From assembly GCA_031255425.1 (NCBI GenBank), contig JAIRSN010000146.1:1-16303 (forward strand): a stretch of DNA of 16,303 nt, written 5' to 3'. The notes beneath the pieces were generated by a model, which saw only the letters and a list, made by a program, of their open reading frames with translations, made no database searches and was not told the DNA's origin. This document shows, piece after piece, positions 303 through 13,347 of this stretch. Source of the DNA: Dysgonamonadaceae bacterium. Its GTDB lineage: Bacteria; Bacteroidota; Bacteroidia; Bacteroidales; Azobacteroidaceae. Every line of letters starts with the position of its first letter. Position 1 is the stretch's first letter. A program made the translations under genes and the position numbers.

Positions 303-3300
303 ATGAAAACAAATCTTCTCAAGAAAATTTCGCTTATCGTTTCGATAACCATTTCAACCGTCGTTACGGCGCCGGCGCTCGACGTGTACCTGGCGTCCGG
401 AGGAAGTGACGACAACGACGGATTGACGGCGGGAACAGCCGTCGCAACTTTGCAAAAAGCATATAATTTGATCCCCGCTAATAATAAAGGGGGGCACGTT
501 ATCCATGTTTCGGGATTTATCGACATTCCGGAAGAAGTAAATATGCAAAACCTCAATCAGACTGTTCCCGGAGCGAACGACGGCAGTAAATTCCTCACCC
601 TCGACGGCGGCGATTCCACCACATCCGGATTCGACGGCGGCGACGCTACCCGCCTGATCAATATGCAGGGGAATGCCGGCGCCATTACATTTAAGAACCT
701 GACATTCCGCCACGCGCGCGGCGAAGGCAGTATCCGGATTGTAAACGCCGGGACGAATGTCGATACGCAACTCAAAAAGTTCGAGCAATGCCGTTTTTCC
801 CACAACACCAGTACGGCAAACAGCAGCATCCTGCACTGTTACCGCGGCGGGGTTGTTGTGGACGACTGCGAATTCGACAACAACAGCGGCGTCAACCGCA
901 GCGGCGCCGTTTGGGTCGGGACAGACGCCATCGTAACAATCCGGAACAGCCGGATCCACGATAATATTGCTACGGGTTCCGGCGGCGCTATTTACGTGGA
1001 CGGAAACGGAAAGCTAACGCTTCAATCGACCGCCATCTGGAACCACGACCTGTCGGGCTCGAACAACACCGACGGCGGCGCCATTTTCTGTGCGAATCCC
1101 AACGGTATAAGCATCGACGGCTGCATCATCCGGAACAATAAGGTGAAACGGTCCGGCGGCGCTATCTATATCAATCCAAGCAACAACGCCGACAGTACGG
1201 TTGTCATTAAAAACACCTTGATAGCCAATAACGAAGCAGCCGGAAACAGTGGCGGCGGTGTTTACATTGCCAATGAAACAGCCGGGTCCCGGATCGATGT
1301 TTCCTTTATCAATTCGACCATTTACGGAAATAAAACAACCCACCACGGCGGCGGTGTTTTCGCCACGGGCGCGCAGCCCGGCAGCTCGTTGCGGTTTATC
1401 AACTGCACAGTAACGGACAACGAATCAACCAATAACAACGGAGGCTTCGGTGCCGGCGTAAGCATTCGCGGCGCCGACCAAAACATCCGGACGTATATCT
1501 ACAATTCGATTGTTGAAAGCAACTTTGCAAGCGTTGGCGAAACGACTAAGATATACAGCGATTTCTGGTTCAGCGGCGGAACGATTACCCCGCAAGGGCT
1601 GCTCGAAACCAACTGTTTCCTCCACCATTCGATAGTCGGCACCCATTTCGGCAACCTTCAGGGGAGCATCCCGGCCGACAACCGTATCAATTCGGGCGTC
1701 AACGGCGCCGGACTGGCGGTTCCCCACGCCGATTATATTGCTTCGCAAAACAGCATCCCGCTTGATTTTGATTCCGAAGCCCTGCAATTCGGCGACGCGC
1801 AATACTTGCAGGCATTGGACATTCACACCGACCAGAACGGCAACATTCGCTCTTTCGCCGACGGGAAATGCGCCGCAGGAGCGGTGGAAGTCCCTGCCGA
1901 ATTTGTCGTCACTCATCCGGATCCGCACGATTATCAACATTTTATTATCTACGGACAAAGCCTTTCCGTTGGCTACCAGGCCTATCAATCCCTGTCGCTG
2001 GACAATGTTCCGGGCAATTACATGATTGGCGACCAGGTGTGGTTGAATTACGGCAATACGGTTTTTGATCAGTTGAATCCGTTGACGGCGACTTCTGCCC
2101 TCACTTCGGCGGCGATTGCCGAATGTCCGGTCACTGCGGCGGTAAACCATATCCGCTTACGGCAGGAAACCGATTTTCCCGAACGGGACAACCGTTTCAT
2201 CGCTACTTCGACCGGCATGGGCGGGAAAACAATTGAACAACTCTCGAAAGGACATGCCGAAAGACATTACAATGTGTATGAGTCGGCATTGAAATCGGCT
2301 TACGGCATTGCGGCACGTTCGGGAAGCACGATTACTTGTCCCGCCATCTTTTGGATGCAGGGCGAATATAATTATACGTCCGCCGTGGAAACGCCTACGC
2401 CGAAAGACGACTACAAAGCGGCTTTGGTGCAGTTGAAAAACGATATGCAGGCGGATGCGCAGGAGAAATACGGGCAATCCGGTGCGCCGCTGTTCATTAC
2501 CTACCAGGTGGGGGCGCAATATACGCGCGGCCGGTTGGAAGCCGGGATGGCACAGCTTGAGGCTTCCAATGAATACGAAGACATTATTTGCGCCGGTCCT
2601 GTATACCCCGTTACCGACGTGGGCGGGCACATCGACGCCAACGGTTCGCGCTGGTACGGCGAAATGTTGGGCAAAGCTTATTACCAGACCAAGGTATTGG
2701 GACAAAAATTCAAACCGCTGCAACCGCTGCGAATCACCCTGGACAACAACGACGACAAACAGGTGATTATCCACTATTATGTCCCCGTAAAACCGGTCGT
2801 ACTGGATACGCTGACCTTAAGGCAGGTGTCCGACTACGGTTTTGAGGTATACAGCAACGAGGTCAGGCAACCCATCAGCCGGGTGGAAGTGACCGGGGAT
2901 GATGAGGTGACCATCACCTGTGCCGCCCCGTTAAGCGGCGAGGTGACGGTTGCTTACGCGGGGGTAAACGTAAACACCCGCGGTCACGGCAACCTGCGCG
3001 ACAGCGACCCTGCCAAAGCGTTCGGACGCTATATTGATCCCGAACTGAAAACCGATGGCGAGAACTACGATTATCCGCATTATCCGGATCCCAACCAGGT
3101 GACTTTTATTCCTTCCAGCGGGGAACCCCTGGATCCGGAGACCCTGTTGCCGATTTACGGTCAAGCCTATCCGTTGTACAATTTCAGTGTGGCGTTTTAC
3201 CTGCCCGCCGAAAAACCGACGGCATTGCCTTCTGCAAATGTTCGAAGGACGGATGTATATGTGGCAAAAGATATTTTGCATGTAAACGGAAAAGCGACGG

Positions 3301-3443
3301 TTTCGCTGTTGGATCTGTCGGGTCAAACGGTCGGCAGTTTCCATTCGGAAGGTCGCTACGATTTGGCTTATTTGCCATCGGGTGTTTACATCGTCCGCGT
3401 GCAAACGAAGGAAGAAGTGAAAAGCCTGAAAATCATTCTATAA
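303..3443 (+). CDS. secreted beta-helix / SGNH esterase-like surface protein with T9SS sorting domain (one esterase cassette)
   Basis: This 1046-residue protein starts at ATG 303. Residues 1-25 form a signal peptide (Lys-rich start, hydrophobic core, cleavage after APA). Residues about 27-530 form a right-handed parallel beta-helix with repeated GGA(I/V)(Y/F) or GGGV(Y/F) turns and FxxN-like motifs, as in chlamydial Pmp-type passengers. Residues about 541-795 match SGNH hydrolases of the sialate O-acetylesterase (SASA) group: YGQSLS with candidate nucleophile Ser553, FWMQGE at 683-688, and candidate catalytic His776 in GGHIDANGxRWYGE. A beta-rich module with VLD and YGFEV motifs and a GNLRDSDP motif follows. 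The last ~65 residues look like a T9SS type A sorting domain. It is probably exported and surface-anchored, removing acyl groups from a glycan. The substrate is unknown, and WxQGExD here has Asn in place of the usual Asp. It is probably co-transcribed with its larger homologue 11 bases downstream. Confidence 0.85.
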   Translation: MKTNLLKKISLIVSITISTVVTAPALDVYLASGGSDDNDGLTAGTAVATLQKAYNLIPANNKGGHVIHVSGFIDIPEEVNMQNLNQTVPGANDGSKFLTLDGGDSTTSGFDGGDATRLINMQGNAGAITFKNLTFRHARGEGSIRIVNAGTNVDTQLKKFEQCRFSHNTSTANSSILHCYRGGVVVDDCEFDNNSGVNRSGAVWVGTDAIVTIRNSRIHDNIATGSGGAIYVDGNGKLTLQSTAIWNHDLSGSNNTDGGAIFCANPNGISIDGCIIRNNKVKRSGGAIYINPSNNADSTVVIKNTLIANNEAAGNSGGGVYIANETAGSRIDVSFINSTIYGNKTTHHGGGVFATGAQPGSSLRFINCTVTDNESTNNNGGFGAGVSIRGADQNIRTYIYNSIVESNFASVGETTKIYSDFWFSGGTITPQGLLETNCFLHHSIVGTHFGNLQGSIPADNRINSGVNGAGLAVPHADYIASQNSIPLDFDSEALQFGDAQYLQALDIHTDQNGNIRSFADGKCAAGAVEVPAEFVVTHPDPHDYQHFIIYGQSLSVGYQAYQSLSLDNVPGNYMIGDQVWLNYGNTVFDQLNPLTATSALTSAAIAECPVTAAVNHIRLRQETDFPERDNRFIATSTGMGGKTIEQLSKGHAERHYNVYESALKSAYGIAARSGSTITCPAIFWMQGEYNYTSAVETPTPKDDYKAALVQLKNDMQADAQEKYGQSGAPLFITYQVGAQYTRGRLEAGMAQLEASNEYEDIICAGPVYPVTDVGGHIDANGSRWYGEMLGKAYYQTKVLGQKFKPLQPLRITLDNNDDKQVIIHYYVPVKPVVLDTLTLRQVSDYGFEVYSNEVRQPISRVEVTGDDEVTITCAAPLSGEVTVAYAGVNVNTRGHGNLRDSDPAKAFGRYIDPELKTDGENYDYPHYPDPNQVTFIPSSGEPLDPETLLPIYGQAYPLYNFSVAFYLPAEKPTALPSANVRRTDVYVAKDILHVNGKATVSLLDLSGQTVGSFHSEGRYDLAYLPSGVYIVRVQTKEEVKSLKIIL

Positions 3444-3454
3444 TTCAATTGTAT

Positions 3455-6400
3455 ATGAAAAGTTTTCTCCTGAAAAAAGCAGCCGTATGCTTTCTGCTGC
3501 TCTGTGTCGTCTCCCGCCTGTCTGCTACGGATATTTATTTGTCTGCCGCGGGCAACGATAACAACGACGGCGCTACTTCCGAAAATGCCGTAGCCACATT
3601 AAGCAAGGCAATCGGCTTGATCCCCACCGACGGTACGGATTATGTGATTAAGGTTTCCGGTTTTATCCCGGCAGCATCCGAATGTATCCTCAACCGGCGG
3701 ATCTATTTCACCATCGAAGGCGATCCGGAAATCCCATCGGGGTTCGACAGCGGAAACACGACCCGCGTCCTCAATTTACAGGGCGCACCGGGAAAGGTAA
3801 CGCTGCGAAACCTGACCTTCAAAAACGGAACGGCGGCCGAAGGCGGCGGCGTCAGGGCAATCAACTCCGGCGAAATCGTCCTCGAAAACTGTATTTTCAC
3901 AAACAATACCACCACCGGCAACAGCGGTACGCTGCATCTCTACAATGTGGCGGACACAAAGATTTTCAAATGTACATTCCGGAACAACAAAGCCAAACAG
4001 GGCGGCGGTGTTTTCCAGAACAACGGCGGGAAAATCGCAATGGACTCCTGCTTAATCGAAAACAACGACCTTTCGAGCGTTGGCGGTTCGAGCGGCGGCG
4101 GCATCTACCTCGGCAATCCCAATGGGTTTTCGCTTGCCAACAGCATTATCCGTTTCAATAAGGTAGCTGCTTATGGCGGCGGCATTGCCCTTGCGGTAAG
4201 TACCGCCGCGATGACCGACAAAACGGTCACAATCACGAATACCTTGCTTGCCAACAACGAATCCAACCAGGGCGGCGGCATTTATATCAACAATGCCGTG
4301 GCAGGCGGCAGCACGGCGTTTTCGCTGATCAACTCTACGCTGTACAAAAACCTGTCGGTCTCTTACGGAGGCGCGCTGTTTGTTGTCGGCAATACGGCAA
4401 CCGGCAGCAGCGTGAAAATCGTCAACGCCACCATCGTCGAAAACTATACGCAGGGCAATGGCGGACACGGCGGCGGCATCAATTTCCGTGATGCTTCGCC
4501 CGCAAGCCTCACGCGCTACATCTACAACAGTATTCTGGAGGATAATGGCGCTTTGAATAACGGAAATCCACAAAACTCCGATCTGACGTCGTCCTACACA
4601 GCCGCAGACGGAACCGATTTCTTCCTGCGCAATTCCTTTGTTGCCGTCACACAAGCCGGTTTGAATGCTTATGAGGATCAGGCGGGCTACGGAAATAAAA
4701 TCCGTTACGGCAGTCAACATGCATCGGGACTGGCTTCTCCGAGTCAGGCGTATATCGATTTGCAAAACGCCATTCCTTTATTGTCCGATGCCTTTCCGGC
4801 GCTTACGGGAGGCAATGCGCAATACCTGAAAGACTTGAATATCAACACCGACCAGTTGGGAAATATCCGCCTGTTTGCCGGTGACAAATGCGCTGCCGGC
4901 GCTGTTGAAGTGCCGGATGATTATATTGTAGATGATCCGAAAAATTATAAATACCAGCATTTTATTATTTACGGACAAAGTTTGTCGGTGGGAAAATTAA
5001 GCTATCAGGCGCTGCCGGAAACGCCGCTGCCGGACAATTATATGCTGGGCGGGCAAATCTGGATAGCCAATGGAAACAGCAATCTCACTACGCTCAATCC
5101 GTTGATCAGCAATTTTAACCACAACATGTCGAACACCGGTGAAAATCCGCTGACCGGCGCCGTGAATCATATCCGCCTTGCCTGCGGCAATACATTGACC
5201 GGCGCCGATAAGTTTATCGCCACTTCGGTGGGCGACGGCGGACGTTCCATTGCGCAATTATCCAAAGGACACGAACTGAAATTGTACGACCATTACTTAT
5301 CCGCCTTGCAGTCGGCGCGTACCGTCGCTCACGGGGAAGGAAGCACGATTACTTGTCCCGCCATCTTCTGGATGCAGGGCGAAACGGATTATATCAACCT
5401 GCCCAGTTTGTCGAAAAATGCGTACAAAGCGGCTTTGATCCAACTGAAAAACGATATGCAAGCCGACGCTATTTCACGCTACGACCAAACGGCAAATAAT
5501 AAACCGTTGTTCTTTACCTATCAAACCAATGGCAGTTGGACCCGTACGAAAGGCGGGCTGGGAGTAGGCATGGCGCAAGTGGAGGCTGCCAACGAAAACG
5601 CCGATATTGTTTGCGCGGGACCGGTGTATCCGGTCACTTCGATGCCGGACGGTCATTTGGACGCGAACGGTTACCGTTGGTATGGCGAAATGTTCGGGAA
5701 GGTGTATTATCAAACCAAAGTATTGGGGCAAAAATTTAAGCCGCTGCAACCCACCGGTGTGGAAATCAACGGAAATGAAATAACCATTCGTTTTTACGTT
5801 CCTGTTCCGCCGTTGGTTTTGGATATAAATACGGTGCAAAAAATCAATGATTATGGTTTTGAGGTTTATGTAGATGGTTTTGAACCCGCGAACAAAAAAA
5901 CCATTACGTCCGTACAACTGGTGGGCGCCGATGCGGTCAAGCTGACTTGCCCCGGTTCGTTAACCGGCGAGGTTCACGTCGTTTACGCAGGACAGGGCAG
6001 CGGTTCCGGACAAAAATCAGGTCACGGCAACCTGCGCGACAGCGATCCTGCCACCGGTTATTACAACTACCGTAATCCGGAGGGCAAAAGCGACGGGGTG
6101 AATTACGATTACCCGCACAATCCCTTCGACGACCCCCGGCATGTCGACTGGACGTACGTTCCTGCCGGCGGCGAACCGAAGGATGAGGAAGGTCATGAAA
6201 TATGGGAGAAGCCTTATCCGCTCTATAATTTCAGCGTGGCGTTTTGCAAAACCATCGACAATAATCCGTTAGCCACCGGTTACAAGCATCTCATCATGTA
6301 TGGGCAAAGCCTTTCATGCGGTGCGCAGGGGTATCCGCCGCTTTCCACCGAGCCGGTGCGCGGAAATTACATGCTCGGCAGCCAGGTATGGATAAACTAC

Positions 6401-7828
6401 GGACATCCTGCCGGCGACTTGAATCAACTGAATCCGCTTGTGTCCAACATCCCTTATTCCGATAGGACCAAAGACCGCAATTACGCCATTATGGGCGAAC
6501 ATCCCTTAACCGGTGCCGTCAATCACATTCAGGCAAAAACACAGGGAACGGCAGATGCTTCGCGCATTTTAGCGACTTCAGCCGGAACCGGCGGATGCGC
6601 CATCGAACAGTTGGAGAAAGGAACGGGATTGTACACCAATCAGTTTTACAAATCGCTGACGGTAGCGAAGGATGTGCTGGGAAACGAAGTAAATCTTTCC
6701 TGCCCGGCGATTTTCTGGTTACAGGGCGAAGCCAATACGGTGGAAAATACCAACGGATACACCACCGGCAAAAACGAATACAAAGCGAAGCTGCTCCACC
6801 TGAAAAACGATATGCAAGCCGATGTGCAGGCGAAATACGGGCAAGCCGTCCCACCGGTATTGATTACCTATCAAATGGGGGGACCCTGGTTGAAAACCTT
6901 TTACGACCTGCCCATTTCGATGGCACAGCTCGAAGCGTCCAATGAAAATGCCGACGTCATTTGCGCCGGGCCGGTGTATCAACTGACCTTGCCCACTTCG
7001 GGCGCACATCCCAACTCCAACGGTTACCGCTGGTATGGCGAAATGCTGGGCAAAGTGTATTACAAAACGCAAATCCTGAAAGAAGATTTCAAACCCTTGC
7101 AACCCATCGCTTTTTACCGGACGGAAAACGCCAATGAATTGAAAATACGGTTCCTTGTTCCGCATTTGCCTTTGGTGTTGGACGACAATCTGGTGGCACA
7201 TAAGACCGGCTACGGCTTTGAAGTGAAACGAAACAACAGTAAGTTGACCGTCAGCAACGTAAGCATTGACAACGATTGTGTGATTCTGTCATTGTCGCAA
7301 GCGTTGTTGCCGGCGGATGAAATAGAAATTTCTTACGCCGGAATTGATTTACAGGCGGGGAATTTGCGCGACAGCGATCCGTATCAGGCACTTACTGCTT
7401 ACGAAGATTTAGACCGCAGCGCCGAAGGCATTTTCTTCTATCCCCGCAAGGATAACGCTACGCTCCGTCCGCGCCTGGAGCCGAAAGATGCAGCCGGTAA
7501 TGCCATTTACAACAAGCCTTATCCTTTGTATAATTTCTGCGTCGCGTTTTACAAAAAACTCCTTGTCGGAGAGATGCAAACGACAAGCCTGAACGCATTT
7601 GCCGGGAAACAGCATCAACCGGAGGTTTACATCACCGGCAACACGCTGGTTGTTGAAGGCGCCCAGGTACGTAAACTCGAAATCTTCGACCTTTCCGGAA
7701 AGTGCGTAAAATCCTTTCCGGAAAATGCCGGTCTTGGAAAGTTTTTACTGGATAACCTGAATAAAGGAATATATATCAGTAGAATAATTACCGAAAAAGA
7801 GAATTATTCCACGAAGATTGTTTGGTGA
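3455..7828 (+). CDS. secreted beta-helix protein with two tandem SGNH esterase-like cassettes and T9SS sorting domain
   Basis: The frame is open from TTG 3449, but ATG 3455 gives a normal signal peptide (residues 1-24, ending LSA), so I chose 3455 (1457 residues). Residues about 25-485 form a beta-helix with many GGG(I/V) turns, homologous to that of the preceding gene. The first esterase-like domain (about 497-755) has YGQSLS with Ser509, FWMQGETD at 638-645 and His734 in DGHLDANG. The second (about 940-1205) has YGQSLS with Ser952, FWLQGE at 1087-1092 and His1185 in SGAHPNSNG. Each is followed by a beta-rich module with VP-PLVLD, YGFEV and GNLRDSDP motifs, so the repeat unit is about 443 residues. 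The C-terminal ~70 residues resemble a T9SS type A domain (DLSGK, GIYI). No Shine-Dalgarno site is visible, as is usual in this phylum. It is probably the second gene of an operon. The second domain lacks the Asp near its catalytic His. Confidence 0.85.
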   Translation: MKSFLLKKAAVCFLLLCVVSRLSATDIYLSAAGNDNNDGATSENAVATLSKAIGLIPTDGTDYVIKVSGFIPAASECILNRRIYFTIEGDPEIPSGFDSGNTTRVLNLQGAPGKVTLRNLTFKNGTAAEGGGVRAINSGEIVLENCIFTNNTTTGNSGTLHLYNVADTKIFKCTFRNNKAKQGGGVFQNNGGKIAMDSCLIENNDLSSVGGSSGGGIYLGNPNGFSLANSIIRFNKVAAYGGGIALAVSTAAMTDKTVTITNTLLANNESNQGGGIYINNAVAGGSTAFSLINSTLYKNLSVSYGGALFVVGNTATGSSVKIVNATIVENYTQGNGGHGGGINFRDASPASLTRYIYNSILEDNGALNNGNPQNSDLTSSYTAADGTDFFLRNSFVAVTQAGLNAYEDQAGYGNKIRYGSQHASGLASPSQAYIDLQNAIPLLSDAFPALTGGNAQYLKDLNINTDQLGNIRLFAGDKCAAGAVEVPDDYIVDDPKNYKYQHFIIYGQSLSVGKLSYQALPETPLPDNYMLGGQIWIANGNSNLTTLNPLISNFNHNMSNTGENPLTGAVNHIRLACGNTLTGADKFIATSVGDGGRSIAQLSKGHELKLYDHYLSALQSARTVAHGEGSTITCPAIFWMQGETDYINLPSLSKNAYKAALIQLKNDMQADAISRYDQTANNKPLFFTYQTNGSWTRTKGGLGVGMAQVEAANENADIVCAGPVYPVTSMPDGHLDANGYRWYGEMFGKVYYQTKVLGQKFKPLQPTGVEINGNEITIRFYVPVPPLVLDINTVQKINDYGFEVYVDGFEPANKKTITSVQLVGADAVKLTCPGSLTGEVHVVYAGQGSGSGQKSGHGNLRDSDPATGYYNYRNPEGKSDGVNYDYPHNPFDDPRHVDWTYVPAGGEPKDEEGHEIWEKPYPLYNFSVAFCKTIDNNPLATGYKHLIMYGQSLSCGAQGYPPLSTEPVRGNYMLGSQVWINYGHPAGDLNQLNPLVSNIPYSDRTKDRNYAIMGEHPLTGAVNHIQAKTQGTADASRILATSAGTGGCAIEQLEKGTGLYTNQFYKSLTVAKDVLGNEVNLSCPAIFWLQGEANTVENTNGYTTGKNEYKAKLLHLKNDMQADVQAKYGQAVPPVLITYQMGGPWLKTFYDLPISMAQLEASNENADVICAGPVYQLTLPTSGAHPNSNGYRWYGEMLGKVYYKTQILKEDFKPLQPIAFYRTENANELKIRFLVPHLPLVLDDNLVAHKTGYGFEVKRNNSKLTVSNVSIDNDCVILSLSQALLPADEIEISYAGIDLQAGNLRDSDPYQALTAYEDLDRSAEGIFFYPRKDNATLRPRLEPKDAAGNAIYNKPYPLYNFCVAFYKKLLVGEMQTTSLNAFAGKQHQPEVYITGNTLVVEGAQVRKLEIFDLSGKCVKSFPENAGLGKFLLDNLNKGIYISRIITEKENYSTKIVW

Positions 7829-9532: not shown

Positions 9533-11491
9533 TTACCACGAAGTAAGATACGGCATCGTAATCCGATAATCGTTGCCGTATTTTCTATTAAATTCCTCAC
9601 AGACTTCCATTGCATGGGGATTTCTTGCCCACGACCGCCGGGCGACCCCTCCCATCACGTCCCAAATCATCGCCGATTTCAGGATTTCGTCGACCCGCTC
9701 GCTGCCGTCCAGAACCATGCCGAAGCCGCCGTTGACGGCTTTCCCGATTCCTACGCCCCCGCCGTTGTGCAGGGCGACGAGGCTCATGCCCCGGGCGGCG
9801 TTCCCGGCGAAACACTGAACCGCCATATCTGCCATCACGTTACTGCCGTCCTTGATGTTTGCCGTTTCCCGGAAGGGCGAATCCGTTCCGCTGACGTCGT
9901 GATGATCCCGTCCCAGCATGATGGGACCCACTTCTTTTTTCCGGACCATCTCGTTGAAATGCAAGGCTATCGACAACCGTCCTTCGGCGTCGGAATAGAG
10001 AATCCGCGCTTGTGTGCCGACCACCAGCTTGTTCTTTTCCGCATCGCGAATCCAATTGTAATTGTCCCGGTCCTGCCCCCTGCGGTGGGGATCGATACAC
10101 GCCATCGCTGCTTTGTCGGTTTTTATCAAATCGTCGTGATTTCCGCTCAAACAAACCCAGCGGAAAGGCCCGTAGCCATAGTCAAACAGTTCCGGACCCA
10201 TGATGTCTTCCACGTACGAAGGCCAGATGAAACCTTCTTTTTCGTCTGTTTTGTTCCGGGAAATTTCTTTTACGCCCGCATCATAAATAGCTTTCATAAA
10301 AGAGTTTCCGTAGTCGAAAAAGTACGTTCCGCCGGCAACCAGTTTTTTAATCACTTCGAAATGCCTGTGCAGGGAGGCATTTATCCTTTGATAAAACTGC
10401 GGACGGTCTTCTTTTAACAACCGGGTGCGTTCTTCAAACGAAATGCCTGCCGGACAGTATCCTCCTTCGTAAACCGCGTGGCAGGAAGTTTGGTCGGAAA
10501 GCAAATCAATGCGGATCGGCTCCGACGCTGCAAATTCCAGCAAATCTATGATATTCCCCTGGTAAGCAATCGAGTAGGGGCGCTTTTCGTCCAAGTATTT
10601 CCCGGCAAGGTCAAACGCTTTTTGAGCATCGTCCGTCACCGATTGCACCCAGCCTTGCTTCCTGCGTGTCTCGATTCTGGACGGATCGACTTCCGCAATA
10701 ATGGCTACGGCGCCGGCTATTTCTGCGGCTTTGGGTTGCGCGCCGCTCATCCCTCCCAATCCGGAGGAAACGAACAGCCGTCCTTTTAAGTCGCCGCCGG
10801 GAGGAATCCCCAGTTTCAATCTTCCGGCATTCAACAACGTATTAAAAGTGCCATGCACAATCCCTTGCGGACCGATGTACATCCAGCCGCCGGCGGTCAT
10901 CTGCCCGTAGTTTGCCACGCCCATTTGGGCAGCCGTTTCCCAATCCGCCTGATTGTCGTACATCCCAATCATCATCGAATTGGTAAGGATAACCCGGGGC
11001 GCGCCGGGAGCGGACTTGAACAGTCCCAACGGATGTCCGGATTCGACAACCAGCGTTTGTTCGCCGGTCAACACCTGCAAATACTGTTTGATAAGACGGT
11101 ATTGCATCCAATTTTGACAAACCTGCCCGGTTTCGCCGTAAGTCACCAACTCATAGGGATAAAGGGCGATGTCGAAGCAGAGGTTATTATCTATCATAAC
11201 CTGAAATGCTTTTCCTTCGATGCAATTGCCCTCGTATTCGTGAATGGGTTTGGGACGAATGTCGCCCTCGGGACGGTAACGGTAGCCGTAAATCCGTCCT
11301 CTTGTCTGTAATTCCTCCAGAAATTCGGGAATTAACGAGGCGTGCAATTCGGTGGGAATATAGCGGAGTGCGTTTTTCAAGGCTATTTCTGTTTGCGCCG
11401 GATTTAACTTGAATCCCCTGTCGGGAGCGCGTCTGATTCCTTCCGCGAAGGGTGGGTATTTGGGTAAAAAAGAAGGCATGTTAACTTTCAT
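9533..11491 (-). CDS. hutU: urocanate hydratase (urocanase)
   Basis: Urocanase converts urocanate to 4-imidazolone-5-propionate, the second step of cytosolic histidine degradation, using tightly bound NAD as an electrophile. The 652-residue protein shows the NAD-binding GLGGMSGAQ stretch at 244-252 and the signature SDQTSCH at 332-338 followed by GYCPAG. It also has the TNSMMIGMYDN and GWMYIGPQGIVHGT blocks near the N-terminal third. It is longer than the ~555-residue proteobacterial enzymes and fits the longer Bacteroidota/eukaryote-like form. The frame is open back to a TTG at 11515, but that codon lies inside the predicted -7 box, so ATG 11491 is preferred (ATG 11479 is also possible). No hutH, hutI or hutG gene adjoins it, so the rest of the pathway must be elsewhere or absent. 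Confidence 0.95.
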   Translation of the reverse strand: MKVNMPSFLPKYPPFAEGIRRAPDRGFKLNPAQTEIALKNALRYIPTELHASLIPEFLEELQTRGRIYGYRYRPEGDIRPKPIHEYEGNCIEGKAFQVMIDNNLCFDIALYPYELVTYGETGQVCQNWMQYRLIKQYLQVLTGEQTLVVESGHPLGLFKSAPGAPRVILTNSMMIGMYDNQADWETAAQMGVANYGQMTAGGWMYIGPQGIVHGTFNTLLNAGRLKLGIPPGGDLKGRLFVSSGLGGMSGAQPKAAEIAGAVAIIAEVDPSRIETRRKQGWVQSVTDDAQKAFDLAGKYLDEKRPYSIAYQGNIIDLLEFAASEPIRIDLLSDQTSCHAVYEGGYCPAGISFEERTRLLKEDRPQFYQRINASLHRHFEVIKKLVAGGTYFFDYGNSFMKAIYDAGVKEISRNKTDEKEGFIWPSYVEDIMGPELFDYGYGPFRWVCLSGNHDDLIKTDKAAMACIDPHRRGQDRDNYNWIRDAEKNKLVVGTQARILYSDAEGRLSIALHFNEMVRKKEVGPIMLGRDHHDVSGTDSPFRETANIKDGSNVMADMAVQCFAGNAARGMSLVALHNGGGVGIGKAVNGGFGMVLDGSERVDEILKSAMIWDVMGGVARRSWARNPHAMEVCEEFNRKYGNDYRITMPYLTSW

Positions 11492-11512
11492 ATATAATTT
11501 TATTAGGTTTGA

Positions 11513-11543
11513 CAAAGATACTATTTTACTTAAGAAGTCGCAA
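11513..11543 (-). promoter_or_regulatory. hutU promoter
   Basis: Read on the minus strand, TATCTTTG (11520-11513) matches the Bacteroidota -7 box TAnnTTTG exactly. A TTG at 11543-11541 sits 20 bases upstream as a -33 box. The -7 box ends 21 bases before the chosen ATG, giving a short leader. This site argues against a start at TTG 11515. Confidence 0.6.
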
Positions 11544-11566
11544 TTATTGTTCTCTTAAAAAGAGGG

Positions 11567-11950
11567 CGAACCCCTAAATCCATTGAAAATCTGTTAATAT
11601 TTATTATTTCACAGCCCGCGAAAACCTGAATCTGTTAACATTTGCACTTTCGCGTGACGCGAAAACGCAAATTTGTTAATGCCCGTTAATTCGCGCCACG
11701 CGAAAAAGTGGAAACGTTAATGCCCGTTAATTCGCACGACGCGAAAAAGTGAAAAAGTTAATGCTCGTTAATTCGCGTCGCGCGAAAATGAAAAAACGTT
11801 CTGCGGCGGGTTTTCGCGCCCCGCGAAAGTATGAAAAAATTCTGCGGGACGTTTTCGCGCGGCGCGAAAGTGTAAAAAAGTTCTGCGGGACATTTTCGCG
11901 TCACGCGAAAGCATAAAAAACTTCTGCGGAACGTTTTCGCGGAGCTGCGG
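11567..11950. repeat. tandem 41-base array of TTCGCG-N3-CGCGAA palindromes
   Basis: Palindromes begin at 11608, 11649, 11690, 11731, 11772, 11813, 11854, 11895 and 11936, exactly 41 bases apart each time. Those at 11649, 11690, 11772, 11813, 11854 and 11895 are perfect 6-bp inverted repeats; the last three and the 11649 unit extend to 7 bp. The 11608 and 11731 units have a changed left arm (TTCACA, TTCGCA), and the 11936 unit has lost its right arm. Central triplets are GCC, TGA, CCA, CGA, TCG, CCC, CGG, TCA and GAG. A tenth decayed unit at 11567-11607 lacks the palindrome but keeps the linker (TCTGTTAA at the same phase). Linkers of early units share GTTAATGCCCGTTAA; later ones share TTCTGCGG and an A-run. 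Function is unknown: a regulator or nucleoid-protein binding array, or a string of RNA hairpins, are all possible. Confidence 0.92.
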
Positions 11951-11959
11951 CTTTCACTG

Positions 11960-12051
11960 TTTCATTGCACCTTACTATATATACAGGTACAGGATGACAA
12001 TACGCGCCCGGCTATTTCATTACACCTTATATATATACAGATACAGGATGA
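11960..12051. repeat. pair of ~38-base direct repeats, 55 bases apart
   Basis: Copy 1 is 11960-11997 and copy 2 is 12015-12051. Both run from TTTCATT through CACCTTA, a TATATATACAG tract and TACAGGATGA, differing at two substitutions and one deleted base. The DNA after each copy is only loosely similar. The pair starts about 10 bases after the 41-base array and lies about 110-200 bases before the kbl start, upstream of its predicted promoter. A role as regulator sites is inference. Confidence 0.85.
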
Positions 12052-12074
12052 TGACCCCGCGGTTATGAAAATCC

Positions 12075-12087
12075 CACCCTCCGGGTG
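12075..12087. repeat. short hairpin, CACCC-TCC-GGGTG
   Basis: A perfect 5-bp stem surrounds a TCC triloop. It lies upstream of the predicted kbl -7 box, so it is not an attenuator for that promoter. In form it matches the two triloop hairpins near the left end of the window. Confidence 0.4.
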
Positions 12088-12093
12088 TAGAGG

Positions 12094-12124
12094 TGTGGAA
12101 TATAAAATTTTTCATTTATCTTTG
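12094..12124 (+). promoter_or_regulatory. kbl-tdh(-mutL) promoter
   Basis: TATCTTTG at 12117-12124 matches the -7 consensus TAnnTTTG. A TGTG at 12094-12097 (3 of 4 to TTTG) lies 19 bases upstream as a weak -33 box. The -7 box ends 35 bases before the ATG at 12160. The same octamer serves hutU and the tRNA gene. Confidence 0.55.
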
Positions 12125-12159
12125 CCGGCAGTATAACGGATATTTTTTAAAACTACTAT

Positions 12160-13347
12160 ATGAATACCTACTTAAAATTTCAAAAACATCTGACAGATGT
12201 CATTGATGCAATCAAAACAGAAGGACTCTACAAAACAGAACGGATTATCGTGTCGCCTCAATCGGTGAAAATCCGCTTGCAAAACGGGCAGGAAGTGCTG
12301 AATTTCTGTGCAAATAATTATCTGGGACTGTCCGGCCACCCCGGATTGATAGAGTCTGCGGAAAAAGCCATGAAAAATCGAGGCTATGGAATGTCGTCCG
12401 TCCGTTTTATTTGCGGCACGCAGGATTTGCATAAAGAATTGGAACAAACGATTTCCGAATTTTTCGGAACGGAAGACGCCATCCTGTATGCCGCCTGTTT
12501 CGATGCAAACGGCGGCGTATTTGAACCTTTATTGACGGAAGAAGATGCCATTATTTCCGACACCTTAAACCATGCATCCATTATCGATGGCGTGCGCCTG
12601 TGCAAGGCAGTCCGTTATCGTTATGCAAATGCCGATATGAAAGAGTTGGAAAGCCAATTGCAAGCAGCTCAAGGGCAACGCTTCCGGCTGATCGTCACAG
12701 ACGGCGTGTTTTCGATGGACGGGAATGTCGCCCCCCTGGACAGGATTTACGAACTGGCGCAGCAATACGACGCCATGATTATGGTAGACGAATCCCATTC
12801 GGCAGGCGTCGTCGGCAAAACCGGGAAAGGCACAACCGAACAGTTCAACCTGAGAGGCCGTATCGAAATCATCACCGGCACACTGGGAAAAGCCTTCGGA
12901 GGCGCTATCGGCGGATTTACCACCGGTAAGAAAGAAATTATAGAACTGTTGCGTCAACGTTCGCGGCCGTATCTGTTTTCCAACTCCCTGCCGCCTTCGG
13001 TGGCGGGCGCCGGGCTGTACACCTTCCGGTTATTGGAAAAATCCAATGATTTGCAGGATAAATTACATGCCAATACCCATTACTTTGTGGAAAAAATGTT
13101 GGCAGCAGGATTTGATATAAAACCCACTCAATCGGCGATTTGTGCAGTCATGTTGTACGATGCCAAATTGTCGCAGGAGATGGCAGCACGCCTGTTGGAA
13201 GAAGGCATCTACGTCACCGGATTTTATTATCCCGTCGTTCCGAAAGGGCAGGCGCGGATACGCATCCAGCTTTCCGCCGCACACGAAAAGGAACAGTTGG
13301 ACAAATGTATCGCCGCCTTTATAAAAGTAAGAAACAAAATGATATGA
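12160..13347 (+). CDS. kbl: glycine C-acetyltransferase (2-amino-3-ketobutyrate CoA ligase)
   Basis: This is a PLP enzyme of the alpha-oxoamine synthase family. It splits 2-amino-3-ketobutyrate with CoA into glycine and acetyl-CoA, the second step of threonine degradation. The 395-residue length matches the family (E. coli about 398). Visible motifs are NFCANNYLGLSGHP near residue 47; the substrate-site region SSVRFICGTQDLHKELE; VDESHSAG with Asp210 and His213, which contact PLP; and TGTLGKAFGG with the Schiff-base Lys244, the same number as in E. coli Kbl. The start ATG 12160 has no Shine-Dalgarno site but follows a good -7 box. The dehydrogenase gene for the preceding step begins 9 bases after its stop. 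Confidence 0.96.
   Translation: MNTYLKFQKHLTDVIDAIKTEGLYKTERIIVSPQSVKIRLQNGQEVLNFCANNYLGLSGHPGLIESAEKAMKNRGYGMSSVRFICGTQDLHKELEQTISEFFGTEDAILYAACFDANGGVFEPLLTEEDAIISDTLNHASIIDGVRLCKAVRYRYANADMKELESQLQAAQGQRFRLIVTDGVFSMDGNVAPLDRIYELAQQYDAMIMVDESHSAGVVGKTGKGTTEQFNLRGRIEIITGTLGKAFGGAIGGFTTGKKEIIELLRQRSRPYLFSNSLPPSVAGAGLYTFRLLEKSNDLQDKLHANTHYFVEKMLAAGFDIKPTQSAICAVMLYDAKLSQEMAARLLEEGIYVTGFYYPVVPKGQARIRIQLSAAHEKEQLDKCIAAFIKVRNKMI

What the first reader, a model, noticed from the sequence alone, without database searches (positions are those of the whole stretch)
11567..11950. Exact 41-base array of TTCGCG-N3-CGCGAA palindromes between hutU and kbl
Nine successive palindrome positions are spaced exactly 41 bases start to start, with no insertion or deletion, plus a tenth decayed unit on the left. 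The linkers have diverged while the 6-bp arms are mostly kept, so the arms look selected or homogenised. Forty-one bases is close to four helical turns, so every site faces nearly the same side of the DNA; A-runs follow most palindromes at the same phase. This would suit cooperative binding of a dimeric protein, a DNA-bending scaffold or a methylation/nucleoid site cluster. If transcribed, it would give a string of stable triloop hairpins. I know of no described element with this sequence.
Basis: seen in the sequence. Interest (0 to 1): 0.72.

Follow-up and report, generated by a model that had tools for sequence, protein, structure and literature searches.

The report
Four-turn palindrome arrays tied to DUF6261
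A gut Bacteroidales bacterium carries many short DNA arrays whose repeats sit about four helix turns apart; arrays carry different palindromes, and the same kind of array lies in front of nearly every tested gene of an unstudied protein family (DUF6261), which points to an undescribed genetic module.

Summary
The array is real: eight TTCGCG-N3-CGCGAA sites (six exact, one with 1 and one with 2 mismatches) exactly 41 bp apart at 11608-11909, plus a truncated ninth. It is not alone. In 81 fetched contigs of this termite-gut Dysgonomonadaceae-like MAG, 128 of 168 tandem-repeat rows have period 41-43 or a multiple, forming 67 arrays. Linkers are shared between arrays; palindrome arms are nearly constant within an array but differ between arrays (identity 0.90 versus 0.46; linkers 0.88 versus 0.82).

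DUF6261 (PF19775) genes have a 41-43-bp array just upstream in 9 of 9 testable own genes, 24 of 27 genes from 13 other Bacteroidales genomes and 3 of 3 named records. Controls from other genomes: 0 of 60 hutU upstream regions, 1 of 200 random windows; DUF6261 downstream 0 of 25. Sequences differ; pitch is kept (mean 41.6 bp).

Most likely the window array is a satellite copy of this module: DNA-level dimer sites on one helix face. What binds them, and why, is inferred. RNA hairpins lack support; a neutral, hairpin-driven origin is not excluded.

The parts
11608..11909 (.). eight palindromic sites TTCGCG-N3-CGCGAA at exact 41-bp pitch (starts 11608, 11649, 11690, 11731, 11772, 11813, 11854, 11895)
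   Evidence: arm diversity 0.05 and 0.00, loop 0.60 without the first unit
11623..11771 (+). stretch with the four B-type linkers (..GTTAA..), hutU side of the array
   Evidence: same linker type in other arrays
11787..11935 (+). stretch with the four A-type linkers (..AAAAANNTTCTGCGGNRSRTT), kbl side of the array
11936..11958 (+). truncated ninth palindrome at the right end
   Evidence: sequence
11583..11607 (+).
11544..11581 (+). left flank TTATTGTTCTCTTAAAAAGRRGGCGAACCCCTAAATCC, also at the left end of the array on contig C139
11513..11520 (-). TATCTTTG, match to the Bacteroidetes -7 motif TAnnTTTG (motif recalled), upstream of the hutU ATG at 11491
   Evidence: sequence
12117..12124 (+). 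TATCTTTG, match to the same motif (recalled), upstream of the kbl ATG at 12160
   Evidence: sequence
9533..11491 (-). hutU, urocanate hydratase

Best explanation
The array is a satellite ('orphan') member of a DUF6261-array module. Shown: (1) the assembly holds many apparently noncoding arrays with a pitch of 41-43 bp, shared linkers and array-specific palindromes; (2) arrays of the same pitch lie immediately upstream of DUF6261 genes across Bacteroidales, with different sequences. Inferred: (3) the palindromes are dyad-symmetric sites for a dimeric protein, repeated every four helical turns so that all dimers sit on one face and form one cooperative nucleoprotein patch; (4) specificity is private to an array or small group of arrays and is set by the DUF6261 locus, through DUF6261 itself or a partner; (5) arrays at other promoters, such as hutU-kbl, are trans targets or decoys of the same system. 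Steps 3 to 5 are untested; the confidence is for the whole statement.
For: Pitch: in 81 contigs (647,433 bp) 90 of 168 TRF rows have period 41-43 and 38 more a multiple of it; 40 have other periods. Anchored on linkers without looking at palindromes, same-type spacing is 41 (44), 42 (98), 43 (2), and the interval holds a 7/7 stem in 95 and 6/7 in 52 of 164 units, against 1 and 13 after shuffling (chaining accepted gaps of 18-28). Own arms pair better than arms exchanged between arrays: 353 against a maximum of 281 in 5000 permutations of 56 representatives. Identity of the inner six arm bases is 0.897 within arrays, 0.847 within an array across A and B linkers (50 pairs), 0.462 between arrays; linkers 0.88 and 0.82, the linkers being picked by similarity. 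DUF6261 upstream periodicity at 41-43: own 9 of 9, without shuffle control; other genomes 24 of 27 above 20 shuffles each; named records 3 of 3 above 20 shuffles. Controls: 0 of 60 hutU upstream regions and 1 of 200 windows of B. xylanisolvens and Petrimonas at 41-43 above shuffles, although 20 of 60 and 35 of 200 exceed shuffles at some lag; DUF6261 downstream best lag never 41-43 in 25. 63 other Bacteroidia loci (771 kb) have no TRF row of period 41-43. Pitch of 23 linked arrays: 41 x13, 42 x7, 43 x3. Two paralogous DUF6261 loci (C163, C60; 84.8% identical over 164 aa) agree at 0.734 of linker but 0.375 of arm positions over four B units each, while within each locus the arms agree at 1.0 and 0.90. 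Similar palindromes occur in DUF6261-linked arrays and in arrays with no DUF6261 match on their contig: C15 and C218, C60 and C212, G142 C33 and C76.
Against: DUF6261 does not look like a simple DNA-binding protein: the helical part has net negative charge in 32 of 35 homologues and the model gives no PDB match that stands out. No DUF6261 gene carrying the window's palindrome was found; only 4 of the 67 sampled arrays are known to lie next to DUF6261. Three of 27 DUF6261 genes show no such periodicity, and 45 of the 72 matches in other genomes were not cut out and not tested. A stem in the array consensus is significant in only 10 of 28 linked arrays. Of the own nine, C176 is recognised by 11 N-terminal residues only, and C15 and C111 by N-terminal similarity. 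The controls come from other genomes. Arm sameness inside an array could come from local conversion instead of selection. The MAG is 77% complete in 274 contigs.
Confidence: 0.45

Rival explanations
1. Neutral hairpin-driven minisatellite. Arrays grow by slippage; arms stay complementary and alike because replication switches template between arms of different units, so arms turn over in concert without selection. The pitch is inherited from one ancestral unit.
For: Explains why arms are homogenised independently of linker type and why loops vary freely in the window. Arrays are copied with flanks (left flank shared by window and C139).
Against: Does not explain a 41-43 pitch shared by arrays of different sequence in other genera, nor the placement upstream of DUF6261. 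Linkers stay similar between arrays while arms do not, which suggests constraint on linkers.
Confidence: 0.27
2. RNA system resembling type III toxin-antitoxin: the array upstream of DUF6261 is transcribed into repeated structured RNAs that bind the cognate protein; orphan arrays are stand-alone RNAs.
For: Tandem array directly upstream of a gene, differing between copies, multi-copy and patchy. In 5 of 26 loci the periodic stretch ends 17-47 bp before ATG, leaving little room for a promoter between them.
Against: Stem mismatches show no clear wobble asymmetry: own A/B/C arrays 15 G-T against 10 A-C distinct events on the array strand, D arrays 3 against 2; linked arrays 32 G-U against 27 A-C cells on the gene strand. 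In 5 of 26 loci a TAnnTTTG motif lies between array and gene, in four of them within 70 bp of ATG. The window array lies between divergent promoter-like motifs. No Rfam family reached its gathering score in window 11300-12300.
Confidence: 0.12
3. REP or MITE-like mobile palindromes spread by a transposase.
For: Many dispersed copies, palindromes, copied flanks.
Against: No Y1 (RAYT-type) transposase found in the 77% complete assembly; strict tandem pitch; palindromes differ between arrays while linkers are shared.
Confidence: 0.08
4. An ordinary local operator array for hutU/kbl regulation.
For: Position between two divergent genes.
Against: The exact motif has no dispersed single sites (7 copies in the assembly, 6 here and 1 in another array); the array is one of many; no 41-bp array was found around hutU in the relatives L054, L055, L058, L059 and, with short upstream stretches, L056 and L057.
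Confidence: 0.05

Closest known systems
F-plasmid sopC (parS-F) centromere
   Same: tandem repeats of nearly the same pitch (twelve 43-bp repeats), each with a 16-bp inverted repeat bound by a dimer (PMC9178275, passages seen)
   Different: many arrays per chromosome, palindrome differs between arrays, no Par domain in the four window genes tested; DUF6261 proteins match only PF19775 or nothing
Type III toxin-antitoxin loci (ToxIN, CptIN, TenpIN)
   Same: tandem repeats upstream of one gene, repeats differing in sequence and length between loci (PMC4627078, passages seen)
   Different: no clear sign of RNA-level constraint; DUF6261 model is a helical bundle plus a beta domain; arrays also away from DUF6261
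REP / BIME elements with RAYT transposases
   Same: dispersed extragenic palindromes (PMC3733652, passages seen)
   Different: fixed tandem pitch, array-specific palindromes, no Y1 transposase found in the incomplete assembly
Plasmid iterons (recalled)
   Same: helically phased direct repeats near the gene of the protein that binds them
   Different: dyad-symmetric sites, about four instead of two turns, chromosomal multi-copy

Membership tests
DUF6261-array module (defined here) | tandem array with 41-43 bp pitch | tested here: met
   window array at 41 bp
DUF6261-array module (defined here) | linker family and left flank shared with other arrays of this genome | tested here: met
DUF6261-array module (defined here) | DUF6261 gene directly downstream of the array | tested here: not met
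   no PF19775 match on the window contig C64; hence called a satellite array
sopC-type centromere | tandem about 43-bp units each with an inverted repeat | tested here: met
sopC-type centromere | ParA/ParB genes beside the array | tested here: not met
   Pfam on four window genes: urocanase, aminotransferase, epimerase, Fic
sopC-type centromere | segregation function | not testable with these tools
   needs experiment
Type III toxin-antitoxin, applied to DUF6261 loci | array directly upstream of the gene | tested here: met
   not so for the window array
Type III toxin-antitoxin, applied to DUF6261 loci | ToxN/CptN/TenpN-type endoribonuclease fold | tested here: inconclusive
   no PDB sequence match; fold search gives mostly helical bundles
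Type III toxin-antitoxin, applied to DUF6261 loci | array acts as structured RNA | tested here: inconclusive
   no clear G-U over A-C excess; transcription not testable
REP/RAYT | Y1 tyrosine transposase in the genome | tested here: inconclusive
   0 matches to PF01797 in the 77% complete assembly; 5 of 14 control genomes ring
CRISPR | identical repeats separated by unique spacers | tested here: not met
   both palindrome and linker recur within arrays; cas genes not searched
Known Rfam RNA family | match over gathering score | tested here: not met
   window 11300-12300

The most novel reading that the evidence does not exclude
DUF6261 and its upstream array are an undescribed addressing system of Bacteroidales: each locus reads a private palindrome repeated every four helical turns, palindrome and reader change together while linkers and pitch stay fixed, and satellite arrays such as the one at hutU-kbl place other promoters under the same private address.
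Probability: 0.25. Interest if true: 0.9.

Novelty: categorically new. Interest (0 to 1): 0.74.

Why it matters
It gives an unstudied protein family (DUF6261, up to 18 matches per genome) a strong genomic partner that can be tested in cultured species: Parabacteroides distasonis and Prevotella nigrescens records carry such pairs. The double pattern (pitch and linkers conserved, palindromes differing between arrays and changed in concert) is unusual: in an ordinary operator the palindrome is the conserved part. It offers a natural system for asking how a DNA address changes in all sites of an array at once. Such arrays may also explain contig breaks in this MAG (39 of 67 arrays lie within 300 bp of a contig end).

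Tried and rejected
Literature: searches for the motif, for tandem palindromic repeats in Bacteroidetes, for 22- and 41/42-bp repeats, for Symbiothrix repeats and for DUF6261 found no description (the single DUF6261 paper was seen in the search listing only). This covers only the held open-access library.

Synteny: the array is absent upstream of hutU in L054-L059 (L056 and L057 have only about 440 and 610 bp of upstream sequence), so unit number could not be compared between strains.

A first gene call placed 41 of 67 arrays at least 30% inside called ORFs. I took these for spurious frames (a 42-bp period easily stays open; a 41-bp period shifts frame at each unit) and repeated the call with arrays masked. 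So 'noncoding' is a judgement, not a test. With masking, 22 arrays have both neighbours: tandem 11, divergent 9, convergent 2, against 251, 44 and 49 for all adjacent gene pairs and 44, 23 and 8 for pairs at least 250 bp apart; not pursued.

Other Bacteroidales: 200 kb of Petrimonas had no 41-43-bp rows; 200 kb of B. xylanisolvens had ten 21-22-bp rows and one 42-bp row that is a doubled 21-bp unit. In stretches of 20 relatives of the own genus, 41-42-bp rows occurred in G016 and G017, which have DUF6261, in none of 15 genomes without it, and also not in three others that have it.

Full report
Observation. The window holds eight TTCGCG-N3-CGCGAA sites exactly 41 bp apart from 11608 to 11909, six of them exact, followed by a truncated ninth at 11936. 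They lie between divergent hutU (ATG 11491, minus) and a kbl-like gene (ATG 12160, plus). Both genes have a TAnnTTTG promoter-like motif (motif recalled) between the array and the start codon, at 11513-11520 and 12117-12124. Within the array the arms hardly vary, while the three-base loop differs almost from unit to unit and linkers have diverged (diversity without the first unit: arms 0.05 and 0.00, loop 0.60, linker 0.48).

The organism. The best hutU matches are MAGs named Dysgonamonadaceae, Candidatus Symbiothrix and Candidatus Azobacteroides (84-87% identity); that these are termite-gut bacteria is recalled. The window is contig C64 of a 2.01-Mb, 274-contig, 77% complete assembly.

A genome-wide family. 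A search with the array finds 58 places at E up to 1 in the assembly, itself included, 30 of them below 0.01. I fetched 81 contigs (647,433 bp): 38 taken regardless of hits (C1-C40 without C10 and C36) and the other 43 because of hits or as the window contig. Of 168 tandem-repeat rows 90 have period 41-43 and 38 have multiples of it (82-86, 123-129); these merge into 67 arrays. In the 38 unselected contigs there are 18 arrays in 254 kb, 1.8% of the DNA. Linkers fall into families (A: AAAACTTCTCCGGGACGT; B: AAATCTGTTAATTTCTTAC; C: AAATGAGACTCCGGGACGT and AAATGTTAACGCCGGGACGT; D: TTTTCAACTGAATTCATG), and several arrays, the window's among them, run from B to A units.

Private palindromes. Anchoring on linkers alone gave 164 units in 56 chains; 147 have at least 6 of 7 complementary pairs in the interval, against 14 after shuffling. 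The arms belong to each other: exchanging right arms between arrays never reached the observed total in 5000 permutations. Arm identity is 0.897 within arrays, 0.847 within an array even when one unit precedes an A and the other a B linker, and 0.462 between arrays. Linker identity is 0.88 within and 0.819 between; linkers were chosen by similarity, so the second figure is biased upward. So arms are the most constant part inside an array and the least constant part between arrays. Some arm types recur in several arrays (for example TTTCCGG in seven), so 'private' means private to an array or a group of arrays.

DUF6261. Clustering 420 predicted proteins of the sample showed a group of four next to arrays; Pfam names three of them DUF6261, PF19775. 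The assembly has 14 matches, 12 over the cut-off. Every own DUF6261 gene with at least 148 bp of upstream DNA on its contig (9 of 9: C61, C40, C60, C163, C47, C15, C176, C111, C209) has its strongest upstream periodicity at 41 or 42 bp (no shuffle control; the weakest is C209 with 148 bp). Three of the nine were cut by contig ends and are recognised only from the N-terminus: C15 and C111 by tblastn, C176 by 11 residues. In 119 Bacteroidales genomes, 14 including the own one have DUF6261, with 1-18 matches. The tool cut 27 of 72 matches of 13 other genomes; 24 of 27 have their best upstream lag at 41-43, above all of 20 shuffles each (23 of 26, L327). The three without are L320, L322 and L331. 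The same test gave 0 of 60 for hutU upstream regions and 1 of 200 for windows of B. xylanisolvens and Petrimonas; other lags beat their shuffles in 20 of 60 and in 34 of 200, so it is the lag, not the mere excess, that is telling. Downstream of DUF6261 the best lag was never 41-43 in 25. Three named records found afterwards, Prevotella nigrescens NZ_CP082843 and Parabacteroides distasonis NZ_OY725757 and NZ_OY725748, are positive in 3 of 3 (in P. nigrescens the array runs past the annotated start); a phage-labelled gut contig, MT837725, shows lag 41 without a shuffle control. In the own genus 13 of 38 genomes, the own included, have DUF6261. The A linker (up to 2 mismatches) occurs 72 times in the own genome, once in G017 and twice in G025, which both have DUF6261, and once in G008, which has none and where the reversed control pattern also occurs once.

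Concerted palindrome change. The DUF6261 loci on C163 and C60 are close paralogues (84.8% identity over 164 aa). Their upstream DNA aligns unit by unit. Over four B units each, linkers agree at 0.734 of positions and arms at only 0.375, although within each locus the arms agree at 1.0 and 0.90. The A units of each locus carry the same or a closely similar palindrome as its B units. The palindromes of an array therefore changed together while much of the linker stayed.

Level of action. If stems were kept as RNA, G-U mismatches should clearly exceed A-C on the transcribed strand. They are 15 against 10 distinct events for A/B/C arrays on the array strand, which is antisense to DUF6261 at C163, C60 and C176, 3 against 2 for D arrays, and 32 against 27 cells on the gene strand of linked arrays. 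In 5 of 26 DUF6261 loci the periodic stretch ends 17-47 bp before ATG, and in 5 of 26 a TAnnTTTG motif lies between array and ATG, so the array is not always in the leader. This favours DNA, weakly.

What DUF6261 is. A 34-sequence alignment gave a model with mean pLDDT 89.8: a helical part of about 226 residues and a C-terminal beta part. PDB fold comparison gave no match that stands out. The helical part has net negative charge in 32 of 35 homologues, which speaks against simple DNA binding. No gene family recurs beside it within 1.5 kb, apart from three pairs.

Comparison. F-plasmid sopC has twelve 43-bp repeats, each with a 16-bp inverted repeat bound by a ParB dimer (PMC9178275, passages): the architecture is nearly the same, but no Par domain was found beside the window array and the palindromes differ between arrays. 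Type III toxin-antitoxin loci have tandem repeats upstream of the toxin gene that differ between loci (PMC4627078, passages): the layout is that of DUF6261 loci, but RNA evidence is lacking. REP elements are dispersed palindromes tied to RAYT transposases (PMC3733652, passages): no such transposase was found in the incomplete assembly. I therefore file it under none of these.

Limits. The mechanism is inference. The window array has no DUF6261 on its contig and its palindrome has not been matched to a DUF6261 locus. Similar palindromes in a linked array and in one elsewhere were seen for C15 with C218 and C60 with C212 and in another genus for G142 C33 with C76. Contig-end arrays may belong to DUF6261 genes cut off by the assembly. 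That the arrays are noncoding is a judgement.

Noticed in passing
control loci L071, L074, L075, L081, L090, L100, L108, L122: Other Bacteroidia have tandem repeats of 21-22 bp (42 of 116 TRF rows in 63 loci), a number of them palindromic with different palindromes: possibly a two-turn counterpart of the 42-bp arrays.
   Followed up: partly
window 11953-12055: Two copies of TTTCATTRCACCTTA..TATATACAGRTACAGGATGA right of the array; similar sequence recurs in other fetched stretches of the assembly.
   Followed up: no
several own contigs, e.g. L047, L048: A MITE-like element bounded by inverted AAAAGCGGCTGCGCCGCC / GGCGGCGCAGCCGCTTTT copies, often abutting array ends.
   Followed up: no
G000 contigs: 39 of 67 arrays lie within 300 bp of a contig end, so arrays may cause much of the fragmentation of this MAG.
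   Followed up: partly
C163, C60, C176, C36, C139, C109: A conserved flank at the A-linker end (parts of TGATATTATCTAAACGTTYATTCTTTCRATTTATTT and variants) occurs at DUF6261-linked arrays and at arrays without DUF6261.
   Followed up: no
window 303-7828: Two large paralogous proteins side by side, with a third relative on contig C75.
   Followed up: no
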